A DNA stretch of 64,000 nucleotides, from NCBI RefSeq assembly GCF_000263735.1, contig NC_017946.1, forward strand, positions 971,348 to 1,035,347. The letters run 5' to 3'. The stretch is from Pyrococcus sp. ST04. GTDB taxonomy: Archaea > Methanobacteriota_B > Thermococci > Thermococcales > Thermococcaceae. The position numbers were made by a program, and so were the translations under genes. This document shows positions 15,833 to 40,676 of the stretch, in pieces. Numbering within the stretch: the stretch's first letter is position 1; each line of letters opens with the position of its first letter. The notes under the pieces are model-generated. The model was given only the letters and a program-made list of their open reading frames with translations, was not told the DNA's origin and made no database searches.

Positions 15833-16837
15833 TTCTCAATACTACTAAGTTCTTCGGAAACGCACAACTGAGGCCGTGCATTTCTTCACCTACAACAACA
15901 CCAGCTTTCCATACTATTTAGTTCTTCGGAAACGGAGGGCTAACAATACTAAAATATGAGACGGATGAGGAAGTTGAGCTCTTTCCATACTACTAAGTTC
16001 TTCGGAAACTTGGTTGGAGGGAGCTTAGTAGGGCGTTTGTTGAGGGCTTTCCATACTACTAAGTTCTTCGGAAACCAAAACTACCCCTTACAAGCAAAGG
16101 TGGTGGTTGTGCTTTCCATACTATTTAGTTCTTCGGAAACTTCAGAATACTGTAAGAGGGACACCGAGATTGTCCTAAGGTTCGTCTTTCCATACTATTT
16201 AGTTCTTCGGAAACCCTTTCTTTGGGGGTGTTGTTGTGCAGGTGATTTTTCCCTTTCCATACTATTTAGTTCTTCGGAAACAAGTGATGACACCGGACGT
16301 TGAGCCACCCAACAACTTCTTTCCATACTATTTAGTTCTTCGGAAACTTGATGAGCTGGGGCCGGTAGGGGCCCCAGACAGCACTTTCCATACTATTTAG
16401 TTCTTCGGAAACAAGTTCTAGGTATGAAAGAGATTGCCTTGTCTGTTTGTCTGTTTCTTTCCATACTATTTAGTTCTTCGGAAACAAGGCCAGGGAGGTC
16501 GGGAAGCGCTTGATCGGCGGTCTTTCCATACTATTTAGTTCTTCGGAAACATGAGTTATATGAAGAGTTTAATGATTACATTCAAAAGCAAATCTTTCCA
16601 TACTATTTAGTTCTTCGGAAACTCTTCACTTCAACCCCAGAATACCTAACAAGGTCAGCTTTCCATACTATTTAGTTCTTCGGAAACCTAAATAGTATGG
16701 AAAGCACCAGGAGGCGGTAAACTCATAATCACTCGGCAACCCTTTCCATACTATTTAGTTCTTCGGAAACTGTAACCACATAGAATAGTAAAGTGAGCCT
16801 GGGCGTAACTTTCCATACTATTTAGTTCTTCGGAAAC
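15833..16837 (-). CRISPR. CRISPR array, 15 repeats and 14 spacers, transcribed leftward
   Basis: A 29-base repeat occurs 15 times, beginning at 15833, 15905, 15981, 16047, 16112, 16186, 16253, 16319, 16384, 16457, 16522, 16594, 16659, 16742 and 16809. On the plus strand it runs CTTTCCATACTATTTAG then TTCTTCGGAAAC. Spacers are 36-47 bases except one of 54 (16688-16741). The reverse complement ends in GGAAAG, the 3' end seen in Pyrococcus repeats that gives the crRNA 5' handle. The leftmost repeat is degenerate. Both facts place the leader on the right and transcription toward the left. Repeats 1, 3 and 4 carry ACTACTAAG instead of ACTATTTAG. No cas gene is in the window. Confidence 0.98.
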
Positions 16838-17440
16838 TTTGGGTTTTTTGGTTGTTTTCCTTCATTACTCCCTCCCCCAGGCTTAAATAATTTACCCCTT
16901 CAGGAAACCCGTGCTACTGCACTCTCTTTATAAACCCAACCCTAAAATGAAGAACTCACGAAAACCCTCACACTAACGAGTGGAGGATTGTGAATAGTTA
17001 AAACGAGAATTCAAGAAATCGAAGCATGTTAAAAATGAAAAAATTACCTAAAACCAAGAGAATTCAAAAACAATGCTTAACTAGACCTCCTAGACTATCC
17101 AATTTTGGGGCTTCTCGCCTTCACTCCCTAATTAGACTTATGAGAACCCCCAGTTTTCAAATGTGTTCAATTGGCGGGGAATTACTACTGGCGGGGTAAT
17201 CTGAAAACTAAACCCGTTTTCAGGGTCTTATTCTTGTCTTACTCTCCTATCATTGCTTGTTTTTTGAATCTTGACCCCGAGCAGTGCTTTAATCCTCGAG
17301 TATTAAATGCATTAACCCCAACTCTACAAATGAAAAAACCAGCATAACACAAAATAACACCAAACAAACAAAAAATAACACAAATATTAATTACTAATTC
17401 TATTCCTTTGCTCTTTCATCGAAACCTTTAAGGCCTTGAA
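16838..17440 (-). promoter_or_regulatory. CRISPR leader region, about 600 bases without genes
   Basis: The stretch between the newest repeat (16809-16837) and the next gene has no credible reading frame. It contains many short A/T tracts. It holds a TTTATAAA box (16927-16934) and an AAATTATTTAAG box (minus strand, about 16884-16895), either of which could drive array transcription toward the left. Pyrococcus leaders are long and carry both the promoter and the signals for spacer integration. The right end of the leader is not defined by sequence and is set before the promoter of the gene at 17479. Confidence 0.7.
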
Positions 17441-27006: not shown

Positions 27007-27186
27007 ATGGTTAGTGAGGGATCTATCGCTGGCCGTTCTGCTGTGAGAACGATAACTGGAGAACTCGTGGAATTTATAGCCAGGGAAACTGGTCTCGATA
27101 AAAAGATCATTCTAATGGTCTTGAAAGCTGAGGAAGACTTTCTCATGCTTCAGATATCTAAGAGCTTAGGAAGTGACCAGCCATGA
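27007..27186 (+). CDS. 59-residue protein coupled to the giant surface-protein gene
   Basis: The reading frame begins MVSEGSIAGRSAVRTITGEL and continues as a probably all-helical basic/acidic protein (ELVEFIARETGLDKKIILMV then an acidic helix). Its TGA overlaps the ATG of the giant gene (ATGA). It has no signal peptide, unlike the giant product. A TTATAAAG box (26921-26928) lies about 80 bases upstream. The weak ribosome binding site (GTGATG) is a caution, but the overlap and protein-like composition make it credible. Role unknown; it may assist translation or export of the giant protein. Confidence 0.6.
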   Translation: MVSEGSIAGRSAVRTITGELVEFIARETGLDKKIILMVLKAEEDFLMLQISKSLGSDQP

Positions 27187-30100
27187 GGAGGGTTAGCCTT
27201 ATTGTTTTGATGATTCTTCTCGGCTCCCTATTACCTCATAACTTTGTACTCCACGAGAGAGTTCTCGCCCAAGCGGGGCCTTCCGATATAGTCGTTTCGA
27301 ATCCAAGGTATACCGTGGAGAACGGGAAAATAATTGTTTCCGTTCCTATTGAGAATAGGGGAGGGTCGGGAAGTCCATTTAACCTCACGTTCTCATTCAT
27401 TGGTTTCATAAGTTCTCCAGAGCCTGAGGAGGTTCCCTTCACATGGTTCAACACGAGCAGGATGCTTGAAAATTCGCGTGAGGTTTCGTCGGGGGAAGTA
27501 GTTAATGGTAGTGTCGTGCTAAGGGACGACGATGGCTACATAATATACGAACTTCCCTTTGAGCTGAACTTCTTTGGTATTCCCGTGAAAAAACTCTCGG
27601 TCAGCACCAACGGCTACGTGGAGCTGATGACGGAATACGAGGACACTATCTCCGAGGGGGATTACGAGGTATGGGATTTCCTCTCCGAAAGCAGGAGAGA
27701 CTTCGTAGCTGGTCTCGATGAGGATCTCGAAACCGAGGACGGCTATCTGCTCGTGGCCAGAATAGAAAACGGCGTCGTGATTGAGTGGTTTGGCTCAACA
27801 TGGGATGAGTACGACTCGGAGAACTACCCCATCAACTTTCAGCTGATAATACTTTCCAACGGGACGCTCATATGGAGCTATGGTCGTCTCAGGGCCCTAA
27901 GCTACGGCAAGGCGGGGTACTTCTCAAGGGTCTCACTCGAATCCAGGGAGATTGAGCCTGAGGAAGGAAAAAGCTACTCTCTGAGCCTCCCCCAAGTGAC
28001 TCCAACAGTTCTGAAAGTTCAGATTCCACCCATGGAAGAGAATGAAACCCGTAACGTCTCCATAATTTCGCCGGTGGACGAGGGATACGTGCGCATTTTT
28101 GCTGACTTGGAAGAGACACTAAATGAGGTCGACCGCTCAAACAACTTTGCTGAGCTGTGGCTCTGGCCCGGAAACTACTGGATAGAAAACGTCAGCATTG
28201 GCAATGTAACCCCCGGCGAATTCGTCGAGGTAAACTTTACGGTGAAAACAACTTCAAGGCATCCGGAGCCTGTGGCGGTGAGGCTCCTAAAGAATGGGGA
28301 AGTAGAGGTAGAACGCCACATCTGGAACCTCCCAGCGGAGGGTCTGACAGGGGCTCTTCACTGGCTTGCCCAGGGCGGGAGCTACAATCTGAGCCTTGAG
28401 ATAGATGCAATGGGAGATACAAACCTGAGCGACAACTGGGTCTATCTTGGAGAGTACTCCTTCCCGTTGCCGAACTTCAGGATAGTAAATTACTCCATTG
28501 AAGTGCCCCACTGCTCTGGCTCCCCGGCGAGGATAAGGGTGAACGTGACCAATGATGGATCGCTGAACTGGAGCAATGTGGGGGTAATGGGGGCACTCAT
28601 GTACAGCGACGGAACCATGTCACCATTCTGGACCTTCATACCATTCCTGCCTGCAGGAAAAACTGCCGAAGTTCTGCTGGAGCCCGTGGTTGCCCCAGGG
28701 AACATAACCGGGGTTCGTATAGAGGTTGATCCCTACGACTGGGTCGAGGAGTCTAGTGAGGACGACAACTCTGTGAGCGTTGACCTTTCTCTGAGCATTG
28801 AAATGCCTGACTTTACTGTGGTTGGAATGGAGATTCCTTCAAACGTAACGACTGGGGAATCTTACCTGGTAAACGTTACCCTGGACAACCTGGGAGGCTG
28901 CTACGGTGGGGCTGTGGGAGTTAGGCTCTACGAGAACGGTCGCGATGAAGACTCAGAATACGTAGAGATAAACGGAACTACTAAAGTCAGTCTGAGGTGG
29001 TCACCTTCGGCGATAGGATGGGTCAATCTCACCGTCGCAGTCGATCCATACAATGTGATAGCTGAGCTTAGAGAGGATAACAACGAGCTAACTGAGAGAG
29101 TTTTTGTGAGAGGGCCCGATATAACGATAACGAACGTTGAACTGGTGAGCTTTGACGGGATAGCAGGAAGCCCGGCCGTCTTCAACGTGACGCTCAAGAA
29201 CCTCGGTGAAACCTTCACCAGCGGGTTTTATATCAAGGCCTACGGGGGCCTCAGTACGAGCACAATATATGTTCCTGGAGGGCTTTCGAAGGGCGAAGAA
29301 AAGACCGTGGCGATGGAAATCTACGCTAACGCTGGGAACGTTACCATCTATTTTAAAGCCGATTCCTCCGACAGGATAACGGAGACGAACGAGTCAAACA
29401 ATGACTTTTCATACGAACTGAATGTTCCCTTGCCAAACTTTAAGGTTGAAGCTATATCCCTCCCCGAAAACACCGTCGGCTACGTTCCGGTAAACGTCAC
29501 GGTGAGGAACATCGGAGCACCCTACAACGGCACGCGCTTTCCGCTAACGCTCAAGATTTCCATTGGGGGACGTTCAAGATACTATTACATCAGGAATCTT
29601 TTCGGAAGCAACGAAACGATAACCAAGCAAGGGACTATAATTATACAGGCTCCAGGAGGGCTTGTGAATGCAAGTGTCTATTCAAACGTCAATGAAACAT
29701 CTAAATCCGACAACTGGTTGGCCATGAACGTCTCAACCGGCTATCCCGACCTGGTAGTAGAGATTCATCCGCCGGAGGTTTCAGCCGGGAGCTACGTGCG
29801 GGTCAACTACACCGTGAGGAACCGCGGGAACGCGACCCTCTTCCTTAAAGGAACCTCCCTACCCGTGAAATACGGAATTGAATACGAGGACGGGAGAAGA
29901 ATAACCGGAGGGACCTGGATAAGCAACCTTGTTCTGGAGCCTAACGGGACAGCTGAGATAAGGCCCTACCTCAGGTTCAATGGAGGCAGAAACATCTTGT
30001 TTGGTGTTATAGATGAGGCGAACCGGTGGGTGGAGAGTAACGAGGACAACAACAATGCCACCCTCCTGCTGGAGCTGGATAAGCCGGATTTCGCAATAGC

Positions 30101-33100
30101 AAACTATTCGATTCCGGATGAGGTTCTCAACGGCAGTGCGTACCTTTACCATCAGTATGGAATCGAGGTCAACGTCACTAACCTCGGGGGAGAATTTATG
30201 GGACATCTGATAATTGCCCTGCTTGTCGATGGCAGGGTGAATGAATTAACCGGATTCTACAACCTTGGAAAGAACGAGACCAAGGAGGTAACCCTCTACT
30301 ACAGGCCTGAACCCGGGAAACACAACCTAACGATAGCACTCGACTACAGTAACGAGTGGATAGAGGAGAGGAAAAACAACAACAATGCCACCGCTATGAC
30401 CGCTGAGTTCGGGATGCCCGACGTGACTCCGGTTGGCGTGACATGGGAGCCCTACAACTTCACCTCGGGCGAGAGGGTAACCTTCAAGGTTTACCTGAAG
30501 AATCTAGGCCAGGCTTTTGAGAAATCATTCACAACCCGGATTGAAATATGGAACGGAAGCAGCAGGCTGGCGTATGGTACTGCTTATCCCTATCCCTACG
30601 GCTACACCTTCCGGGAAAATGAGACGCGGGAATTCAGATGGATCTGGTACGGTGCAGAGCCTGGGAACTTGACCCTCAGGGTAGTGGCGGATTACTACAA
30701 CTACCTGCCGGAGACCAACGAGACTAACAATAACCTCACCGTTGACCTTGGAAGCATCGGAACTCCTGACTTCGAGTTGAGCAACCTGAGCGTTGGAGAG
30801 CTGGCCTTTGGAAGGTGGGTGGATGTTAACGTCACACTCAGAAATCTCGGGGAGAGCATATACAGACCTTTCAACGTGCTCTTCAACCTTAGCGGGAAGA
30901 CTTACTATGAGACCGTCTACGGCATCGGTGCAAACGAGATGAGGATTCTCAGTAGGCGTTGGTACGTTGATAGAACCGGAGAACTTAAGGTGAGGGTGGG
31001 GGTTGATCCAAGGAATGAAATAGTAGAAACGAACGAAACGAACAACTGGATCTCTGCAATCTACCACGTAGAGCCTCCAGAACTTTTCATAGTCTCATAC
31101 AGGTGGGAGAGGCATGAACTGGCAAGCGGATACTTGGCATTCACGGTGAACGTGACGAACTCCGGTGGAGACACCTACAAGGGCTTCTATCTTGCTATGT
31201 ACGTTGATGGTTCACTGAAAGCCCGTGTTTGGGTTCCGACGCTTCTTTCGGGTGAGACCTTGGAGAAAACCCTGAGATGGCGCCTTGATACAGGAGGAAT
31301 GCACGAAGTCTGGCTGGTGATTGATGATGGCAATTTGATTCCAGAAACTGACGAGGACAACAACATCGTGAAGACCAACGTCACCATTGAGCTCCCAGAC
31401 ATTGAGGTCGAGGGGGTCTCGGTTCCTAAGATGCATGCCAATGCACTATTTACTATTAACATTACTCTGAGGAATTCCGGCATCCAAGACATCGAGAGAT
31501 CATTCTTCGTGGCGGTGTACCAGGACGACAAATACCTCGGGGGAGCATGGGTTAATTCTCTTCCTGCGGGAGATTCAAAGAAAGTTGGGATAGCGGTCAG
31601 GCCCTATCCAGGTGATTCCACCATAACAGTCGTAGCGGATCAGTACAACACCATTGTCGAGGCCAGCGAGGACAACAACGAACTCTCGGTGACCGTTCAC
31701 GTCAGTGCCCCAGATCTGAGGGTTATCTCTTTCTCTCCCGGAAACCCAGGGTACTCCGGAGAGACTGTAAACGCGACTGTTATCATAAGGAACGAGGGGG
31801 ACTACGAGACGGGAACATTCCAGTTGGCGATTCGCGAAAACAGGAAAACCCTTGGAAGCGTGTACGTTGAAAGCCTTATGCCTGGGGAGGAGCTAAACGT
31901 CACGGTACCTTGGAAGGCAGTACCGGGAAGATACAACGTTACCGCGGTCGCCGATCCATACAACGTCATTCGGGAATGGGACGAGAGCAATAATGCCCTG
32001 AGCATTCCGGTCGTCGTTCCGGCGCCAGATTTGAGCGTTTTAAGCTTCAGTTACTCTGGCAGGAGGATAGCAGGGGAGAGCATGAGTTTCATCGTAACAG
32101 TTGCGAACAAGGGAAACACCACCCTGTTGCCGTTCTACGTGGTTATCTATGCTAACTCCACTGTTATTGGTGTCAAAAGGCTCAACGGACTCCAATCGGG
32201 AGAAGTAAGAACCATTTACTTTGAGAATTCCTGGAAAGCCCGCTATGGGAGCTACGTTCTTAGAGCCGTGGTTGATCCCTATAACAAGATAGCTGAGCTG
32301 AGGGAGGACAACAACGAGGCCAATGTGTCGGTATTCATAGACGACGAGACTCCCCCGTCAGTAGTTACTCTCTACCCAGCCAACGGAAGCTTCACTAATG
32401 AGGCACTCATCGGTGTCCTTCTGAGTGATGAAGGATCTGGAGTTGATCTTGAAAAAAGCCAGTTGAAGATTTATCGCGAAGGTATTCCAGTTGAAGGCTT
32501 AGGTGAGGCCTCGTGGGGGTGGCTTATCTTTAGGAACTCAACACCCCTTCTAGACGGAAACTACACGGTAATTCTCACGGCCGTGGACAGGGCTGGTAAC
32601 TCGATAGAGTACTCGTGGAACTTTGTTCTTGACAGGAAGGCACCAGTGATTTCCAGCAACATCGTCAACGGCACCCTTTACAACGGGAGTGTGGTGCCGG
32701 CGATCAACGTCACCGACGAGAACCTGCTGAACTATAGGGTAACCGTTAACGGGAGAGAGTTCCGTGGCGGGGAGATACGGGCTGACGGGAGTTACCTCCT
32801 TGAGGTCTTTGCTGTGGACAAGGCAGGTAATAAGGCGAGATATTCAGCCTGGTTTACGGTCAACGGCATTCCCCATCCACCATCGGGTCTTACACTGAGG
32901 ATGGAAGGAAAGTACGTGGAGCTGAATTGGCTTCCAAGTGGGGATTCGGACATCGCTGGATACTACGTTTACGTGGATGGAAAGAGGCTCAACGAGGAAC
33001 CGGTGGAGGTCACAACCTTCAGGGATATCTTCAGGGGAAGCCTCAACTACAGCGTAACGGCGGTTGATTTCATGGGCTTCGAGAGCGAACCAGTTCAAGT

Positions 33101-36100
33101 ATTCCCTGTGAGACTTGAAATAGAGACCGAGAAGATGGTAGTGGGCTACCCAACCGAGGTCAGAGTGAATATTGAGAACCTAGATGGACCAGCCAACGGG
33201 ACGCTGAGGCTTGAGCTAGTGGACGTCTTTGGAAACATCATCGAGGGTATCGTTAGAAACGTTAGTCTCATCCCTGGGAACGGCACCGAGAACTTTGAAG
33301 TCGTAGTTCCACAGGGTCTTAGCTCGCTTAGGGCTTCCCTGACCATCAATAACTCTGGAACTTTAGCCGTCCTTCCGGTGATTCCCGAAGAAGCCGAGGC
33401 CCCAGTAATTCTCCCTCAAAAGCTTGAAACTGGTCTTCCCGGGCTCGTGGAGGTCAGATTGAGGAATCACGGTTCCAGACCGCTCGACACCTCCAAGGCC
33501 ACTTTGAGGCTGGGAAACATTACAGGGGAGGCCATTGGAGTTCTCCCAACAATTTCTCCAGGTGAGGAAGCGGTTCTCCGCTACCGTATCGTTCCGCGGG
33601 AAAGGGGGCTTCAAAACCTGACTTTCCGTCTGGGATACTTATCAGCAACGATAGAGGTTAATATCAGAGATCCGGTAACGAGTCCAGTTATGGTGTCCAC
33701 AGAGAACTTCGTGCGTGGGGCTAGAGCAAAGGTTTACGTCACCTTCAGAAACATTGGCACAGCACCGCTGAGGGTTGCGGATGTTGAAGTGCTCGGAATG
33801 AGGCGGAGTGTCGGGCTTCTCCTCCCACCAAATCTCTCGGTGGAGCTTCCCTTTGAGTACACGGTACCCCAGAACGCCTCGCGGATTCTCATAAACGCCA
33901 CCGTCTTTACCGATGTGGGAACGTTCAGGAGGAGCATCGTGGCAGAAACTGCGGAGCCAACTTACAATGCCAACGTCACGGTTAAGCCGGTCTTCACAGT
34001 TGGAGAGGATGTGCTCATCGAGGGATTCGCCTACAATTCAAGTGGCCTTCTTGCTAACGTTCCGGTCAAGGTTAGCGTCCTCCGTGGTGACTTCGTGAGG
34101 GAATACTACGTGGTCACCGATGGAACGGGACGCTTTAACCTCACATTCCGGCCGTTAAGGGGAGAATACGGGCACTTCATCGTGAGTGCGACCCATCCGG
34201 CTGTCGTTGCCCCGGAGAGGGACGGGGAGTTTGATATAGTCGGCCTAACCCTTATCCCCGATGTATATGACCTCACGGTTACCCGGGAGTTCACTGGGGA
34301 AATTGAGGTAGAGATAATCAACCACTGGCTCGACTCGAACGTCTCGGTTGATGTTAGTGCTCCGGAGACCTACAACGTTACAGTTCCCCCGAAGATAGAG
34401 CTGAAAAGTGGTCGCAACCGCCTGAAGATTGGACTTTCCAGCAAGAGTGCGGTTAATGGAACCATAGTGATAACCTTCAGAGCTGTCCAGCTGGGGATTG
34501 AAGTGAAGAAGAACCTTACCGTGAGGGTTAACGTCCTTCCACCCGCTCCAAGAATAGAAATCGAACCCCTCAGCCTCGATGTAGGACTTTTGACTAACGA
34601 GAGTGCTAGCAGGACAATAACGGTAAAGAACACGGGATTCGAAGAGCTCAGGAACGTTAGTGTCGTCTCGTCCATAGAATGGGTAAAGGTTGTTTCGGCA
34701 TTCACCGGGCTTGAAGCCGGAAAATCAGGGGCCATAAGTCTCTACATAGCTCCCCCTGAGAACCTAACCGGGACGTTCGAGGGGAGTATAAGGATATCTT
34801 CCTCAAATTACAGGGACATTTATGTTCCAATCAGGATAACTGTAACTCCAAACGCCAAAGGCTCCCTCAGGGTCATCGTCATGGATCCCAACGCCACAAG
34901 GCTAGAAAAAGCTGAGGTTACACTCTACAATGGATACGCCCATTTTGAGGGGAAGACGGACGAAAACGGAACGGTGATCTTCACCGACGTTCCAATCGGA
35001 GAATACACGCTTATAGTGGGTGAGGAGAGCCACTATACTTCAAGCAGGAAGGTTGTCATAGAGGCAGGACTGGAGAGGAATCTAACTGTAGTGCTTATGC
35101 CCTCGGTGCTGGAGATTGAATGGGAGGTCGTGCCTGTAACCATAGAGGACGTCTACATCATAAAGCACGAGATTGGTTACACTACCTACGTTCCCGCTCC
35201 AGAGATAAAAACATACGGTGGCGATCTTGAGGTTTACATAGACTATGAAAAGCTGGCGGAGTTGGGGATAGTAGAGTTCCGGGGACAACTCATAATCAGG
35301 AACACCCATCGCTACGTATCGGTCTTCAATATCACCTTTGAGAGCGGTGGCAACCACTACATAGATGTAGAGTTTATGGTGGATAGAATAGACGAGCTGA
35401 AGCCCGGAGAAACCGTAATAGTACCCTACGTGGTGAGGATTTACTACCAACGCTCGCCGCCTATAAACCCGTGCCTCCACGAGACCAAAGTCTTTATCCT
35501 CAAAGCGGGCGTTGTTTGTGTGGAGGAAGCTGGAAAGATAACCTTAAAGGCCCAGAAAGTGCACAGGTTGATAGTCAAGCCAACCTGCGACGGTTGCTGG
35601 AAGAGCCTGCTAAACATAGGTGCGCACATACTCTTTGAGAAGCTGAGCGACAAGCTGGGAGACCTGCTTGAGAACAATGAGATAGCCAAAGACTCCGGGG
35701 ACAAGGCGCTTGAAGCTTTGAAGGAGCTATATGAGGCATACTATCAGATGAGCATGAACCCCACCGATGAGAACATAAAGAACTATGAGAAAACTCTCCA
35801 GAAGTTCAAAGGAACTCTTCTGGAGATTGGAAAGACCGCCCTGGCAAAGTACGGCGAGAAGTACCTTGAGAACTATCTCTCCACCGAGGGAATTGAGTTC
35901 GACTTGATACTCGATGAAAAGGGTCAGGTCGTCGGGTTTGTGATACCTTCTGATGTCACTCCGATGTACCCAGAGGTCATGAGCACTATCAACGTGCAGA
36001 ACGGAAACGTTCAAGTGAACTGGGAGGAAGCTGAGAAACTTGCAGACAAGCTAACTGGCGGGGTTATATCGGAACTCAAGGAGAAGGCCGAGAACCTGTG

Positions 36101-39100
36101 GATAGTCGAGATGATCAACCTAATAGTGAAGCTTGTTGATGATTACACGCCAATGATAGCTGAGGCCGGAATGAACTGTGCTATCTGCCTACTTCACAAC
36201 AACTGCAGTCCGCCAAATGTCGGGGAGATGAGACCAATCCAGCTCATACGCACGGCCTACTTCACCGGATACGACGGAGGCGGAGCCGGGGGCGTTTCGG
36301 GAGGCGGTGTCCAAGGGGAAACCAGCGTTGGAAGGTTCACGTGCGAGGGTCTTCCGAGACCAAAGAATTCCACGTCACAGACATCGCAACCAACGACTAA
36401 CTCATGTACGGCTTGTAGCATCAAAACTAATCTCTCTGACCCGGGGGAGAGGAAAATCTGCGTTAATCTCCCAGTGAGAAACCTTCCATCCCAGCCCCTC
36501 CAGGAGAACGAGAATGGAGAAGCGCAGAACATGCTTCACATGTGCGTTGATCTGGTCATAACCATAGAACAGAGACTCACCTTCGAGAGACAGGCATTCA
36601 GGGCTTCACTTAGGTTCACTAATACTAATGCCAACTACAGCCTGGAGGATGTCAACGTTACCTTGGTCTTCTTCGACGATAACGCTAAGGATGCAGGCGA
36701 GAGGTTCTTCGTGAGGCTCGAGGAGAGGAGCGGTCTGAACAACGGAGTACTACAACCAAAGGGAGAAGCAAGCTTCAGGTGGCTCATAGTGCCTAAGGTG
36801 GGGGCGGCGAGAGAGTTCAGAACGAGATACTACGTAATGGCCAATGTTACCGCAAAGCTCGGCGACTCCAGACTTGTCTTTGAGACCTGGCCGGCTGTGA
36901 TAGAGGTTAAGCCGGTTCCCCAGTTGGAGCTCGACTACGTGATTCCAAGAAAGGTCTACGGCGATGACCCATACACCCCGGAGATAGAGCAGCCAGTGCC
37001 CTTCATATTCGGATTAAGGGTGAAAAACGTTGGGTATGGAGAAGCCAGGAACCTGAGGATAGCATCAGCCCAGCCCAAGATAGAACGTTCCAACTATCCA
37101 GGAGTGTACATAGATTTCAAGCTACTAGGAACCATCGTTAATGGAAAGGCAGCCCCCAACAGTCTAACGGTGAACTTTGGGGATCTAAAGCCCGGAGAAA
37201 GCTCAACGGCAGCATGGATAATGAGCGCGGAAGTAACGGGAGATTTCGTTTATTACAATGCCACCTTCCAACACAGCGACGAACTAGGTGGAAACGAAAC
37301 GTCCCTAATAAGGGTTCTGAGAACACACTTTCTCTTTAGGGCCTTCAACGACACCGCCAACGACGATGGGATGATGGACTTCCTAGTGGATGATGATGGG
37401 GACGCCATTCCAGAGATGATAATCGACTCCAACGGGGAGGATTATCCCGTTCTGAAGGTCAACTTCACGGAGGAGTATGGGAGAGGCTTTAGAAAGGTAA
37501 TTCCTCTGGTAAAATCCCCAGGTTGGATCTACATGGCGATACCAGTTAGCGGGTTCACGAGAGCGACGAGGAGCGATGGAAAAGAACCAGTGGCCCAATG
37601 GATTGATAACGAAACTCTCCATCTTTTGGATCTTGGAACCTCGGAATTCTACGTTCTAAAGGCTAACCGCCCGCCGGTTCCGGTGGTGAGGGTCAGTGAA
37701 CCCATTCTCGTCAACAGAACAGTAACCCTTGATGCATCATTGAGCTACGATCCAGATGGTAGAATCATTAGATACCTCTGGCGGATTGGCAACGATACTT
37801 TAGAAGGCCCCCTGGTGAGCTATACTTTTAGAGAAGTTGGAAACTATACGGTCATTCTGACTGTCTGGGACGAAGAAAACTCCAGTGCCTCCATAACAAG
37901 AAACATCAGGGTCTATCTGGGCCCGAAGTTCGTCGTTGAAGTGGGAACTATTCCGGAGTGGGGAATAGTGCCCTTCAACGTCACCGTTGAGGTTAGCGTT
38001 ACCAACACTGGGGATACTCTAGGCACATACAATCTTACTATCCTCATCGACAATCAGCTGGAAGTGGTTGAGGAGGTAACACTTCAGGCAGGTGAAATGA
38101 GAAATCTAACGTTCCCGGTTGAGATAACGAGCGCGGGTGAGCATGTAATCTCCGTTAATGGAAAGAACGCAACTGTGTTGGCCTACTGGAACATAAGTCT
38201 GAGTAAAAACGAGACCCTTAAATACACGAAGGACTTCGGATTCTACGATTCCCTAACCTGGGAACCCTTTGTGAAGGACTTCAATAACTGGACCGCACAA
38301 TTGCTGGAAAACGTCTCCCTCCCAGAGCTAATGCTTGAAAGGATACTCGACGAAAAGGTCTCCAACTGGACACTTGTGAATCGCTCCGAGAACCTCAATC
38401 CTCGGGAAAAGGAGGGTTACATTAGAGCCATATACTTCAGAAACGCCACCATCAGAGGAATATCCGGGTGGAACTACACTACCGTAAGGGTAGCTCAGAG
38501 AGTGGTGATCTTCGCGAACGCAAGTCACAGGCTCGATGAGGAGCCACCGACGATACGGGTAACCCCGGAAAGTGGTGTCTATGAGAGAATACCAGTTCTC
38601 AACGTTACAGTCATTGATGAAACCAACGTCACGGTCTGGGTGGAGACGAAGAGGGGCAGGAAAAATCTGACGCTTCTGCTAAAGAATGGCAACGTGTCAG
38701 TTTGGACCGGTATGCCACCCCTTGGGCTTGGGAACAACACGGTTACTGTCTATGCAGAGGACTACTTTGGAAATCGGGCCAATGAGACGCTCTGGATTTA
38801 TCTCAACCCCAAAGCTCCCATAGTTACGATAGAGAGCCCGGAGGAGAAAGTTTACAACTCCAGACAGGTCTGGATAAACTACACCGTAATCGATGATGAT
38901 CTCGTTGGTGTGAAAGCCTACCTTGACGGGAGGCTCATCTCGACTAACTCCTCGTGGAGCGTCAAACTGGTGCTCGACTATGGAACTCACAACTTCACAG
39001 TCGAGGCGTGGGATGTCAGCAACAACGTCACGGAGACTGTCATGTTTAGAATAAACGAACCTCCCACAGTGAACTTCACGTGGAGTGCTGAGTATCTAGA

Positions 39101-40676
39101 GGTGAGCTTCCAAGCCAATTCAAGTGATCCTGACGGCATAATCGAGTATCTATGGGACTTTGGAGACGGCTCAACTGGTCGTGGAGCAAATATTACCCAT
39201 GTCTATGCTAACGGAGGAGTTTACAACGTCACGTTAATTGTTTGGGACACCTACAACCTCAGCTCAAGCATTACTAAGATGATAGAGGTCTTCGCTAATG
39301 TGAGTCTGAGTAGAAACGAGACCTTTGAGTACACCAGGGACTTTGGATTCTACAACTCGACATCGTGGGAATCCTTTAAGAGAGACTTCGAGGAATGGGT
39401 TAACGAGATCCTTCGGGAGATTAAAGTTCCAGAAAGCGAGTTTGACGAGGTGTGGATCGTAAAAGCTGATAACTGGAGCCTCATAAACCACACTGAGAAC
39501 CTCTTACCCGGCTCCGGTAACGGCTGGATAAACGCCACCTATCGCCGTGTGGTTATCATGAAGGGCTTAATTGATCACAACGAGACGACCATGCTTGTAA
39601 TTCAGAGGGTTGTCCTCTTCGGCAGCGCAACCAACGTGAAGGATGTGGAACCTCCGCTCGTGAAAATAGTCTATCCCGAGAACAGAACCTATGATCACAA
39701 CGTTACCGAGCTAATTGTGTTCGTCAACGACTCCACGGTAGTGGCGTCAGTGGTAGCGGAGCTCGATGGGGAAGCTGTTACTCTAATCCAAGCCAATGGC
39801 TCGTGGCGGGCAGAAATAATGGCAGGGGATGGGAGACACCGGATCGTGGTTATCGCAAAGGACATATGGAACAACACCGCCATTGAATGGGTAAACTTCA
39901 CCGTCAACACCACAGTTAGGATTACCGAAATCAATGGGACGGAGATAGTCACAATTCCTGGCGAACTTGAAAGCGCGATCATCGTTCATAACGGACTGCT
40001 TAGGATAACACTTGAATTGGGAGGAGAGAGTGTCTCCCTAGGATTCTCCCTCAGGAAGCAGGTGCTCATAGACGAACGTCTCTGGGAAATGCCGTGGCTC
40101 GCGGTAAGAAGTGGAATGAATATGGGGAGAATTTCAGTTCGGGAGGAGACCATAAGGAAGGCAGGTAAGCTTTATGAGAGAAGAACGTTCAGGATCGAGG
40201 CAATGGGACAAGGTTACGCTGTGCTAATGCTTCCGCTGAATGGAATGGAGGTGGTGAGAGTTACCATCGAGAAAAACGGAACAACTTATGAACTCGGCAC
40301 TACCAATGAGGGCAAAGTCGGCTACTACGGAACCCTCGGAGGATACCTCTACGTTGTCATTAGAGAGGATCCAGTAGTTGAAATTGAGCTTGAAAAAGTG
40401 CTCAAAGAAGAGAAGAAAACTCCGAACTGGTTTGCTCTAGGTTTGTTGTGGGAACGCTGGTACCTAGCGCTTAGAAACGAGTTCATTAAATTCCACATGA
40501 ATTGCACGAACGAGACTGCGCTTGAAAAGGCTCTAAAATTACACAAAACGGCAGAGGAGTACTACACAAAAGGAAAGGAATACTATCCAAATGTCCCTGT
40601 ATTGTACGCCATATACATGAGAAAGGCATATCTGCTTGAAAAACAGGCGATCGAAATTGTGAGGCCTTACACTTGA
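27183..40676 (+). CDS. Giant secreted multi-domain protein (CARDB, FN3-like, PKD), 4497 residues
   Basis: The N-terminus (1-31) is a signal peptide. Residues about 90-270 form a beta-rich nidogen-like module (STNGYVEL, FVAGLDEDL, FQLIILSNGTLIWSYG). About 14 CARDB-type Ig units follow up to residue 1720, each about 107 residues and ending in a D/N-rich motif such as REDNNEL. Then come an Ig-like unit, an FN3-like unit (about 1896-1970), more CARDB-like units, carboxypeptidase-regulatory-like folds (about 2270 and 2560-2636), a helical Cys-containing region with a GG-rich linker (about 2640-3120), an Asp-rich calcium-type motif (about 3390) and two PKD domains (about 3500-3580 and 3958-4037). 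A duplicated NETxxYTxDFGFY module lies around the second PKD. No C-terminal membrane span or CGP-CTERM tail is present. Very many NxS/T sites suggest heavy glycosylation. Adhesion or an S-layer-like structure is inferred. Confidence 0.85.
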   Translation: MRRVSLIVLMILLGSLLPHNFVLHERVLAQAGPSDIVVSNPRYTVENGKIIVSVPIENRGGSGSPFNLTFSFIGFISSPEPEEVPFTWFNTSRMLENSREVSSGEVVNGSVVLRDDDGYIIYELPFELNFFGIPVKKLSVSTNGYVELMTEYEDTISEGDYEVWDFLSESRRDFVAGLDEDLETEDGYLLVARIENGVVIEWFGSTWDEYDSENYPINFQLIILSNGTLIWSYGRLRALSYGKAGYFSRVSLESREIEPEEGKSYSLSLPQVTPTVLKVQIPPMEENETRNVSIISPVDEGYVRIFADLEETLNEVDRSNNFAELWLWPGNYWIENVSIGNVTPGEFVEVNFTVKTTSRHPEPVAVRLLKNGEVEVERHIWNLPAEGLTGALHWLAQGGSYNLSLEIDAMGDTNLSDNWVYLGEYSFPLPNFRIVNYSIEVPHCSGSPARIRVNVTNDGSLNWSNVGVMGALMYSDGTMSPFWTFIPFLPAGKTAEVLLEPVVAPGNITGVRIEVDPYDWVEESSEDDNSVSVDLSLSIEMPDFTVVGMEIPSNVTTGESYLVNVTLDNLGGCYGGAVGVRLYENGRDEDSEYVEINGTTKVSLRWSPSAIGWVNLTVAVDPYNVIAELREDNNELTERVFVRGPDITITNVELVSFDGIAGSPAVFNVTLKNLGETFTSGFYIKAYGGLSTSTIYVPGGLSKGEEKTVAMEIYANAGNVTIYFKADSSDRITETNESNNDFSYELNVPLPNFKVEAISLPENTVGYVPVNVTVRNIGAPYNGTRFPLTLKISIGGRSRYYYIRNLFGSNETITKQGTIIIQAPGGLVNASVYSNVNETSKSDNWLAMNVSTGYPDLVVEIHPPEVSAGSYVRVNYTVRNRGNATLFLKGTSLPVKYGIEYEDGRRITGGTWISNLVLEPNGTAEIRPYLRFNGGRNILFGVIDEANRWVESNEDNNNATLLLELDKPDFAIANYSIPDEVLNGSAYLYHQYGIEVNVTNLGGEFMGHLIIALLVDGRVNELTGFYNLGKNETKEVTLYYRPEPGKHNLTIALDYSNEWIEERKNNNNATAMTAEFGMPDVTPVGVTWEPYNFTSGERVTFKVYLKNLGQAFEKSFTTRIEIWNGSSRLAYGTAYPYPYGYTFRENETREFRWIWYGAEPGNLTLRVVADYYNYLPETNETNNNLTVDLGSIGTPDFELSNLSVGELAFGRWVDVNVTLRNLGESIYRPFNVLFNLSGKTYYETVYGIGANEMRILSRRWYVDRTGELKVRVGVDPRNEIVETNETNNWISAIYHVEPPELFIVSYRWERHELASGYLAFTVNVTNSGGDTYKGFYLAMYVDGSLKARVWVPTLLSGETLEKTLRWRLDTGGMHEVWLVIDDGNLIPETDEDNNIVKTNVTIELPDIEVEGVSVPKMHANALFTINITLRNSGIQDIERSFFVAVYQDDKYLGGAWVNSLPAGDSKKVGIAVRPYPGDSTITVVADQYNTIVEASEDNNELSVTVHVSAPDLRVISFSPGNPGYSGETVNATVIIRNEGDYETGTFQLAIRENRKTLGSVYVESLMPGEELNVTVPWKAVPGRYNVTAVADPYNVIREWDESNNALSIPVVVPAPDLSVLSFSYSGRRIAGESMSFIVTVANKGNTTLLPFYVVIYANSTVIGVKRLNGLQSGEVRTIYFENSWKARYGSYVLRAVVDPYNKIAELREDNNEANVSVFIDDETPPSVVTLYPANGSFTNEALIGVLLSDEGSGVDLEKSQLKIYREGIPVEGLGEASWGWLIFRNSTPLLDGNYTVILTAVDRAGNSIEYSWNFVLDRKAPVISSNIVNGTLYNGSVVPAINVTDENLLNYRVTVNGREFRGGEIRADGSYLLEVFAVDKAGNKARYSAWFTVNGIPHPPSGLTLRMEGKYVELNWLPSGDSDIAGYYVYVDGKRLNEEPVEVTTFRDIFRGSLNYSVTAVDFMGFESEPVQVFPVRLEIETEKMVVGYPTEVRVNIENLDGPANGTLRLELVDVFGNIIEGIVRNVSLIPGNGTENFEVVVPQGLSSLRASLTINNSGTLAVLPVIPEEAEAPVILPQKLETGLPGLVEVRLRNHGSRPLDTSKATLRLGNITGEAIGVLPTISPGEEAVLRYRIVPRERGLQNLTFRLGYLSATIEVNIRDPVTSPVMVSTENFVRGARAKVYVTFRNIGTAPLRVADVEVLGMRRSVGLLLPPNLSVELPFEYTVPQNASRILINATVFTDVGTFRRSIVAETAEPTYNANVTVKPVFTVGEDVLIEGFAYNSSGLLANVPVKVSVLRGDFVREYYVVTDGTGRFNLTFRPLRGEYGHFIVSATHPAVVAPERDGEFDIVGLTLIPDVYDLTVTREFTGEIEVEIINHWLDSNVSVDVSAPETYNVTVPPKIELKSGRNRLKIGLSSKSAVNGTIVITFRAVQLGIEVKKNLTVRVNVLPPAPRIEIEPLSLDVGLLTNESASRTITVKNTGFEELRNVSVVSSIEWVKVVSAFTGLEAGKSGAISLYIAPPENLTGTFEGSIRISSSNYRDIYVPIRITVTPNAKGSLRVIVMDPNATRLEKAEVTLYNGYAHFEGKTDENGTVIFTDVPIGEYTLIVGEESHYTSSRKVVIEAGLERNLTVVLMPSVLEIEWEVVPVTIEDVYIIKHEIGYTTYVPAPEIKTYGGDLEVYIDYEKLAELGIVEFRGQLIIRNTHRYVSVFNITFESGGNHYIDVEFMVDRIDELKPGETVIVPYVVRIYYQRSPPINPCLHETKVFILKAGVVCVEEAGKITLKAQKVHRLIVKPTCDGCWKSLLNIGAHILFEKLSDKLGDLLENNEIAKDSGDKALEALKELYEAYYQMSMNPTDENIKNYEKTLQKFKGTLLEIGKTALAKYGEKYLENYLSTEGIEFDLILDEKGQVVGFVIPSDVTPMYPEVMSTINVQNGNVQVNWEEAEKLADKLTGGVISELKEKAENLWIVEMINLIVKLVDDYTPMIAEAGMNCAICLLHNNCSPPNVGEMRPIQLIRTAYFTGYDGGGAGGVSGGGVQGETSVGRFTCEGLPRPKNSTSQTSQPTTNSCTACSIKTNLSDPGERKICVNLPVRNLPSQPLQENENGEAQNMLHMCVDLVITIEQRLTFERQAFRASLRFTNTNANYSLEDVNVTLVFFDDNAKDAGERFFVRLEERSGLNNGVLQPKGEASFRWLIVPKVGAAREFRTRYYVMANVTAKLGDSRLVFETWPAVIEVKPVPQLELDYVIPRKVYGDDPYTPEIEQPVPFIFGLRVKNVGYGEARNLRIASAQPKIERSNYPGVYIDFKLLGTIVNGKAAPNSLTVNFGDLKPGESSTAAWIMSAEVTGDFVYYNATFQHSDELGGNETSLIRVLRTHFLFRAFNDTANDDGMMDFLVDDDGDAIPEMIIDSNGEDYPVLKVNFTEEYGRGFRKVIPLVKSPGWIYMAIPVSGFTRATRSDGKEPVAQWIDNETLHLLDLGTSEFYVLKANRPPVPVVRVSEPILVNRTVTLDASLSYDPDGRIIRYLWRIGNDTLEGPLVSYTFREVGNYTVILTVWDEENSSASITRNIRVYLGPKFVVEVGTIPEWGIVPFNVTVEVSVTNTGDTLGTYNLTILIDNQLEVVEEVTLQAGEMRNLTFPVEITSAGEHVISVNGKNATVLAYWNISLSKNETLKYTKDFGFYDSLTWEPFVKDFNNWTAQLLENVSLPELMLERILDEKVSNWTLVNRSENLNPREKEGYIRAIYFRNATIRGISGWNYTTVRVAQRVVIFANASHRLDEEPPTIRVTPESGVYERIPVLNVTVIDETNVTVWVETKRGRKNLTLLLKNGNVSVWTGMPPLGLGNNTVTVYAEDYFGNRANETLWIYLNPKAPIVTIESPEEKVYNSRQVWINYTVIDDDLVGVKAYLDGRLISTNSSWSVKLVLDYGTHNFTVEAWDVSNNVTETVMFRINEPPTVNFTWSAEYLEVSFQANSSDPDGIIEYLWDFGDGSTGRGANITHVYANGGVYNVTLIVWDTYNLSSSITKMIEVFANVSLSRNETFEYTRDFGFYNSTSWESFKRDFEEWVNEILREIKVPESEFDEVWIVKADNWSLINHTENLLPGSGNGWINATYRRVVIMKGLIDHNETTMLVIQRVVLFGSATNVKDVEPPLVKIVYPENRTYDHNVTELIVFVNDSTVVASVVAELDGEAVTLIQANGSWRAEIMAGDGRHRIVVIAKDIWNNTAIEWVNFTVNTTVRITEINGTEIVTIPGELESAIIVHNGLLRITLELGGESVSLGFSLRKQVLIDERLWEMPWLAVRSGMNMGRISVREETIRKAGKLYERRTFRIEAMGQGYAVLMLPLNGMEVVRVTIEKNGTTYELGTTNEGKVGYYGTLGGYLYVVIREDPVVEIELEKVLKEEKKTPNWFALGLLWERWYLALRNEFIKFHMNCTNETALEKALKLHKTAEEYYTKGKEYYPNVPVLYAIYMRKAYLLEKQAIEIVRPYT

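What the first reader, a model, noticed from the sequence alone, without database searches (positions are those of the whole stretch)
16659..16741. CRISPR spacer carrying an inverted copy of the repeat, forming a 17-bp hairpin with it
The 54-base spacer at 16688-16741 starts with CTAAATAGTATGGAAAG, the exact reverse complement of the first 17 bases of the adjacent repeat (16659-16675). The remaining 37 bases are a normal spacer length. In the leftward transcript this makes a perfect 17-bp hairpin with a 12-base loop that would bury the cleavage-site side and crRNA handle of that repeat. Origin could be aberrant integration or copying of the repeat during acquisition. Effect on Cas6 processing of the flanking crRNAs is an open question.
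Basis: partly seen in the sequence, partly recalled or inferred. Interest (0 to 1): 0.72.

Follow-up and report, generated by a model that had tools for sequence, protein, structure and literature searches.

The report
CRISPR spacer with repeat-derived tail
In a heat-loving microbe, one stored virus fragment carries a back-to-front piece of the neighbouring CRISPR repeat stuck to its end; related microbes show milder versions, which look like scars left when the storage enzyme's first attempt to insert the fragment failed and was repeated.

Summary
The second spacer from the leader (16688-16741, 54 nt; array read leftward) is a normal 37-nt spacer followed by CTTTCCATACTATTTAG, the exact inverted copy of the repeat's last 17 nt, abutting the next repeat. 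It is not unique in kind. In 16 arrays of six Pyrococcus genomes (G000-G004, G007), 12 of 321 spacers end or begin with 7 or more nt of repeat terminus: 6 inverted and 3 direct at the leader-distal end, 3 at the leader-proximal end. Without the tail, 10 of 12 are 35-38 nt; with it, all are 42-54 nt. Related arrays show 1 of 300 and ATTGAAA-type arrays 2 of 2458. The inverted tails start at the repeat's terminal base and do not run on into neighbouring spacers; no body has a second copy in the arrays read. Best explanation: Cas1-Cas2 first joined the prespacer by one end to a repeat terminus, the abortive product was cut inside the repeat, and the tailed prespacer was integrated normally. The crRNA-blocking hairpin is real on paper at 37 C but is calculated to be molten above about 87 C. 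The cutting step is inferred, not shown.

The parts
15833..16837 (-). CRISPR array: 15 repeats of 29 nt, 14 spacers, read leftward
16838..17340 (-). leader, conserved in all four arrays of this genome (93-97% identity to the window copy)
16742..16770 (-). repeat 2 from the leader (upstream of the odd spacer)
16688..16741 (-). odd spacer, 54 nt, number 2 from the leader
16705..16741 (-). body of the spacer, 37 nt, normal length; no second copy or target found
16688..16704 (-). 17-nt tail, inverted copy of the repeat's leader-distal (3') 17 nt
16659..16687 (-). repeat 3 from the leader; forms the hairpin partner and loop
16659..16704 (-). 46-nt potential hairpin (17-bp stem, 12-nt loop)

Best explanation
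The spacer is a normal 37-nt acquisition with a 17-nt repeat-derived tail gained during integration. Proposed path: (1) the prespacer's 3' end that should attack the leader-repeat junction instead attacked the far end of the repeat, joining to the 5'-CTTTCC strand (a one-ended, half-site join); (2) the intermediate was not completed, repair synthesis displaced the repeat strand for some bases and a flap nuclease (Fen1, Cas1 or similar) cut it n bases in, freeing a prespacer with n bases of repeat on its 3' end; (3) Cas1-Cas2 then integrated this tailed prespacer normally. Joins of either prespacer end to either repeat end give the four tail classes seen. Shown here: the tails, the exact start of the inverted ones at the repeat terminus, normal body length, recurrence. 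Inferred: steps 1-3. Effect on crRNAs is probably small at growth temperature, and the tail lies at the PAM-distal end (inferred), so the guide likely still works.
For: Terminal repeat pieces of 6 nt or more in group A (321 spacers): i3 7 against 0.25 expected, d3 7/0.07, i5 3/0.05, d5 2/0.15 by shuffling (i/d = inverted/direct, 3/5 = leader-distal/proximal). A PWM null on long spacers and a third-order Markov null expect at most 0.06 and 0.32 per class. On 497 spacers, reversed repeats give 1,0,0,0 and rotated repeats 0.17-0.67 per class. Tailed (7 nt or more) bodies are 35-38 nt in 10 of 12, totals 42-54 nt, none tailed at both ends. In all 6 inverted leader-distal cases the inverted match ends at the repeat boundary (0,0,1,0,0,1 nt beyond, as chance gives), so neighbouring spacer DNA was not copied. 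No body has a second copy in the fetched loci. 9 of 12 tails are at the leader-distal end, the end reported to attack first (PMC9699676 passage). One-ended insertions dominate in vitro and can move between the two repeat ends (PMC8390005); polymerase displacement dismantles a half-site construct (PMC8211822); Fen1 and overexpressed Cas1 support 5'-flap processing in Haloferax extracts (PMC9051519).
Against: No target was found for any tailed spacer searched, so it is not proven that the tail is absent from the source DNA. The 17-nt tail is nearly twice the next longest inverted tail (9 nt). Two bodies are 42 nt. d3 pieces of exactly 6 nt sit on bodies of 41-45 nt (4 cases), which fits less well. 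The closely related arrays of group B (1 of 300) and T arrays (2 of 2458) hardly show the effect, and why is only guessed. The flap-cutting step has no direct evidence. The tail classes were defined after seeing the data.
Confidence: 0.5

Rival explanations
1. The spacer was captured from CRISPR DNA itself (own array, another cell's array or a virus-borne mini-array) or copied from a crRNA, and inserted backwards: 17 nt of repeat plus a whole spacer.
For: Read in reverse, the 54 nt is exactly 'repeat 3' end + 37-nt spacer'. All four tail classes could be read this way.
Against: No second copy of any of 20 tail-bearing bodies in the fetched loci; no spacer has pieces of 5 nt or more at both ends; body length is more constant than total length.
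Confidence: 0.15
2. Template switching or slippage by the polymerase that fills the single-stranded repeats after a correct integration inserted a repeat piece between spacer and repeat.
For: Also keeps a normal body length; gap-filling synthesis after integration is taken to be needed in all CRISPR systems (PMC8211822 passages).
Against: Needs a jump with no shared bases at the junction and a stop exactly at the repeat's terminal base; in 6 of 6 inverted leader-distal cases copying does not run on into the neighbouring spacer.
Confidence: 0.2
3. A functional hairpin: the inverted copy was kept because it controls Cas6 processing of the flanking crRNAs.
For: Strong predicted fold at 37 C.
Against: Calculated to be unfolded above about 87 C; unique length; relatives have 7-9 nt only; the spacer is the second newest, so there was little time for selection (inference).
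Confidence: 0.04
4. Sequencing or assembly artefact (a false inverted duplication).
For: Single genome; no reads available.
Against: Repeat tails of 7 nt or more in four other genomes, inverted leader-distal ones in three of them; the unit is otherwise perfect and lies in a one-contig genome.
Confidence: 0.05

Closest known systems
One-ended (half-site) spacer integration and disintegration by Cas1-Cas2 (S. pyogenes, PMC8390005: abstract, passages and section 17 read)
   Same: One prespacer end joins to a repeat terminus at either the leader-repeat or repeat-spacer junction, and the product is often undone
   Different: There the release is clean, at the join; here the released end would carry 7-17 nt of repeat and be used again
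Ordinary type I-B spacers of Pyrococcus
   Same: 37-nt body, same leader, repeat and cas1-cas2-cas4 module
   Different: 17-nt repeat-derived tail, total 54 nt
3'-DNA tailing of protospacers by RT-Cas1 (PMC11014452, start of abstract seen in the listing only)
   Same: Extra bases added to a protospacer's 3' end before integration
   Different: Those are short DNA tails on RNA protospacers in an RT-Cas1 system; here the tail is exact repeat sequence and the genome's intact Cas1 matched a type I-B model

Membership tests
CRISPR array with leader (type I-B, with III-A effectors) | Regular repeats with unique spacers | tested here: met
CRISPR array with leader (type I-B, with III-A effectors) | Conserved leader at one end | tested here: met
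CRISPR array with leader (type I-B, with III-A effectors) | cas1, cas2, cas4 and effector genes in the genome | tested here: met
   (families); Cas2 only by eye from an ORF
Product of aborted one-ended integration | Tail begins exactly at a repeat terminus | tested here: met
Product of aborted one-ended integration | Body of normal spacer length | tested here: met
   37 nt here; 10 of 12 in 35-38 nt
Product of aborted one-ended integration | Tail absent from the source DNA next to the protospacer | tested here: inconclusive
   no target found
Product of aborted one-ended integration | Strand cut inside the repeat by a nuclease | not testable with these tools
   needs biochemistry
Array-derived (self CRISPR) spacer | A source copy of the body as a spacer | tested here: not met
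   0 of 20 bodies have a second copy in the fetched loci; the window's body occurs in 1 of 94 genomes, only at its own place

The most novel reading that the evidence does not exclude
About 4% of spacers in these Pyrococcus arrays carry scars of failed first integration attempts: repeat termini left on the prespacer when a half-site join was cut out and the prespacer reused. CRISPR arrays would then hold a natural record of which prespacer end attacked which repeat end, and how far repair went before release.
Probability: 0.42. Interest if true: 0.72.

Novelty: new variant of a known kind. Interest (0 to 1): 0.55.

Why it matters
How half-site integration intermediates are resolved in living cells is an open question (my judgement). 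If the tails are scars of such events, existing genome sequences already contain a readable record of them, with tail length giving the cut position and class giving which end attacked. It also shows that spacers longer than usual can carry non-target sequence, which would mislead protospacer searches that use the full spacer.

Tried and rejected
Looked for the source of the 37-nt body: relatives' genomes with 3 mismatches (1 of 94, itself), own-genome BLAST (only repeats and weak chance hits), plasmids and phages (short chance hits only), IMG/VR exact 25-mer and 20-mer (0). Targets of five other tailed bodies by exact 20-22-mers in IMG/VR: 0 each, one more 0; five single BLAST searches of whole tailed spacers in phages or plasmids: no match. 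PAM orientation could therefore not be tested.

A first version of the repeat pattern missed the whole GTTTCCG family because it was one base short (corrected). The 'end displaced' control is partly circular because a shortened tail still counts, so I do not lean on it. One apparent direct tail (L014 spacer 7, 11 nt) is a tandem duplication inside a repeat and was dropped. Spacers under 20 or over 90 nt, with N, or identical to one already counted were dropped; arrays of fewer than four repeats were not counted; loci that overlap others were skipped. The genome G005 was not sampled.

Papers: searches listed nothing that describes repeat-tailed spacers; this covers only open-licence PMC full texts. 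Two P. furiosus uptake papers that looked relevant (PMC5737086, PMC7293040) are not held.

Full report
What is there. The array at 15833-16837 has 15 repeats and 14 spacers. A leader of about 500 bp, shared by four arrays of this 1,736,885-bp genome, lies to its right, so the array is read leftward. The second spacer from the leader is 54 nt. In reading direction it is GGTTGCCGAGTGATTATGAGTTTACCGCCTCCTGGTG (37 nt) followed by CTTTCCATACTATTTAG (17 nt), the inverted copy of the repeat's last 17 nt, and then the next repeat.

The genome is a Pyrococcus-like Thermococcales; the sizes of two relatives (1,765,118 and 1,738,505) agree with my recollection of P. abyssi and P. horikoshii, and the window's genome size with P. 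sp. ST04. These names are recalled and come from no call. An array of the same repeat and leader elsewhere in the genome sits with a type I-B Cas1, Cas4, Cas3, Cas5/Cas7 and III-A Csm set plus Cas6, and a Cas2-like ORF read by eye.

Is it alone? I collected spacers from related arrays. Class names: i = inverted, d = direct repeat piece; 3 = leader-distal end of the spacer, 5 = leader-proximal. In the first set (16 arrays, 319 spacers) the window's 17 nt is the longest inverted match by far (next 9), but shorter pieces recur at spacer ends. In the final set group A, Pyrococcus arrays with AAATAG-type repeats from six genomes (16 arrays, 321 spacers), has pieces of 6 nt or more: d3 7 (expected 0.07), i3 7 (0.25), d5 2 (0.15), i5 3 (0.05). 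One spacer counts in both d5 and i5, so these are 18 spacers. Group B, arrays with a variant repeat from six other genomes (11 arrays, 300 spacers): 0, 0, 1, 0. ATTGAAA-type arrays: Thermococcales 2, 0, 1, 0 of 476 (expected 0.15, 0.33, 0.17, 0.12) and others 3, 1, 0, 0 of 1982 (expected 1.35, 1.48, 1.10, 1.55).

With a threshold of 7 nt: A 12 of 321, B 1 of 300, T 2 of 2458 (Fisher A vs B p = 0.003, A vs T p = 3e-10). The 12 are spread over 5 of 6 genomes. Two stricter nulls, a position-specific model of long spacers and a third-order Markov model, expect at most 0.06 and 0.32 per class at 6 nt. Because the classes were chosen after looking, the p-values are guides only, but the excess is many-fold.

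What the tails look like. Bodies after removing the tail: 35, 35, 36, 36, 37, 37, 37, 37, 38, 38, 42, 42 nt; totals 42-54 nt. So a normal spacer was lengthened, rather than a normal-length spacer happening to end in a repeat-like motif. The inverted leader-distal tails are 7, 7, 7, 8, 9 and 17 nt on bodies 37, 37, 42, 37, 36 and 37. The inverted match stops at the repeat's outer boundary in all six, running 0, 0, 1, 0, 0, 1 nt further, as chance would. None of 20 bodies examined (18 of group A, one of group B, and the later dropped L014 case) has a second copy in the fetched loci. Tails are rare where spacer length is tightly kept (T: sd 1.9-2.1 nt; B: 2.5) and common where it is loose (A: sd 5.1), which fits tails surviving only where 3' ends are not strictly trimmed. 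That last link is inference from a few groups.

How it most likely arose. A prespacer whose 3' end joins to the 5' end of either repeat strand gives exactly 'spacer + repeat terminus'. Such one-ended products dominate S. pyogenes Cas1-Cas2 reactions in vitro and move between the two repeat ends (PMC8390005, abstract, passages and section 17). Displacement synthesis can dismantle a half-site construct (PMC8211822, passages). In Haloferax extracts Fen1, and Cas1 when overexpressed, support cleavage of a 5' flap (PMC9051519, section 8). If the displaced strand is cut n nt inside the repeat, the prespacer is freed with an n-nt repeat tail and can be integrated again in the usual way. The end said to attack first, the PAM-distal one (E. 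coli; PMC9699676 passage), is the end that carries 9 of 12 tails. The join and release-by-cutting are inferred.

What it does. At 37 C the repeat and tail fold into a strong hairpin. Extrapolated to growth temperature it is not stable: about -1 kcal/mol at 85 C, +1.2 at 90 C, +3.4 at 95 C (1 M salt parameters, so only a guide; Pyrococcus growth near 90-100 C is recalled). I expect both flanking crRNAs to be made, with the odd guide carrying 17 non-matching bases at its PAM-distal end. No RNA data exist here.

Limits. No target of any tailed spacer searched was found, so PAM side and tail origin are untested. Group A comes from six genomes of one genus. The window's tail, at 17 nt, is an outlier in its own class. 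The literature search covered open PMC papers only, and two P. furiosus uptake papers that looked relevant could not be read.

Noticed in passing
G000:C1:802453-803269 (locus L171, 7313-8297): A second cas4-cas1 locus whose cas1 is split into two overlapping ORFs, while several other Pyrococcus genomes have an intact second cas1.
   Followed up: partly
L014, near 2579-2608 (G000 array at 1466498-1467030): One repeat carries an internal 11-bp tandem duplication (GTTTCCGAAGAACTAAATAAGAACTAAATAGTATGGAAAG).
   Followed up: partly
L013, spacer 1 after the repeat at 2920 (G000:177419 array): The newest spacer is 51 nt and begins with its own short palindrome (AAGGGTTT...AAACCCTT), perhaps a fold-back extension of a prespacer end.
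   Followed up: no
window 27183-40676 (+): A 4497-aa ORF with CARDB and PKD domains, likely a giant surface protein.
   Followed up: no
L152, L132 and L055: Single direct repeat tails also occur in group B (d5 7 nt, body 37) and in ATTGAAA-type Thermococcales arrays (36+7 and 38+11), so the process may be rare rather than absent elsewhere.
   Followed up: partly
Group A arrays L012-L030 and window: 28% of spacers are 43 nt or longer, far looser than in related arrays (9%) or ATTGAAA-type arrays (1.5-2.7%). Leader-distal ends of long spacers in the GTTTCCG family look pyrimidine-rich.
   Followed up: partly
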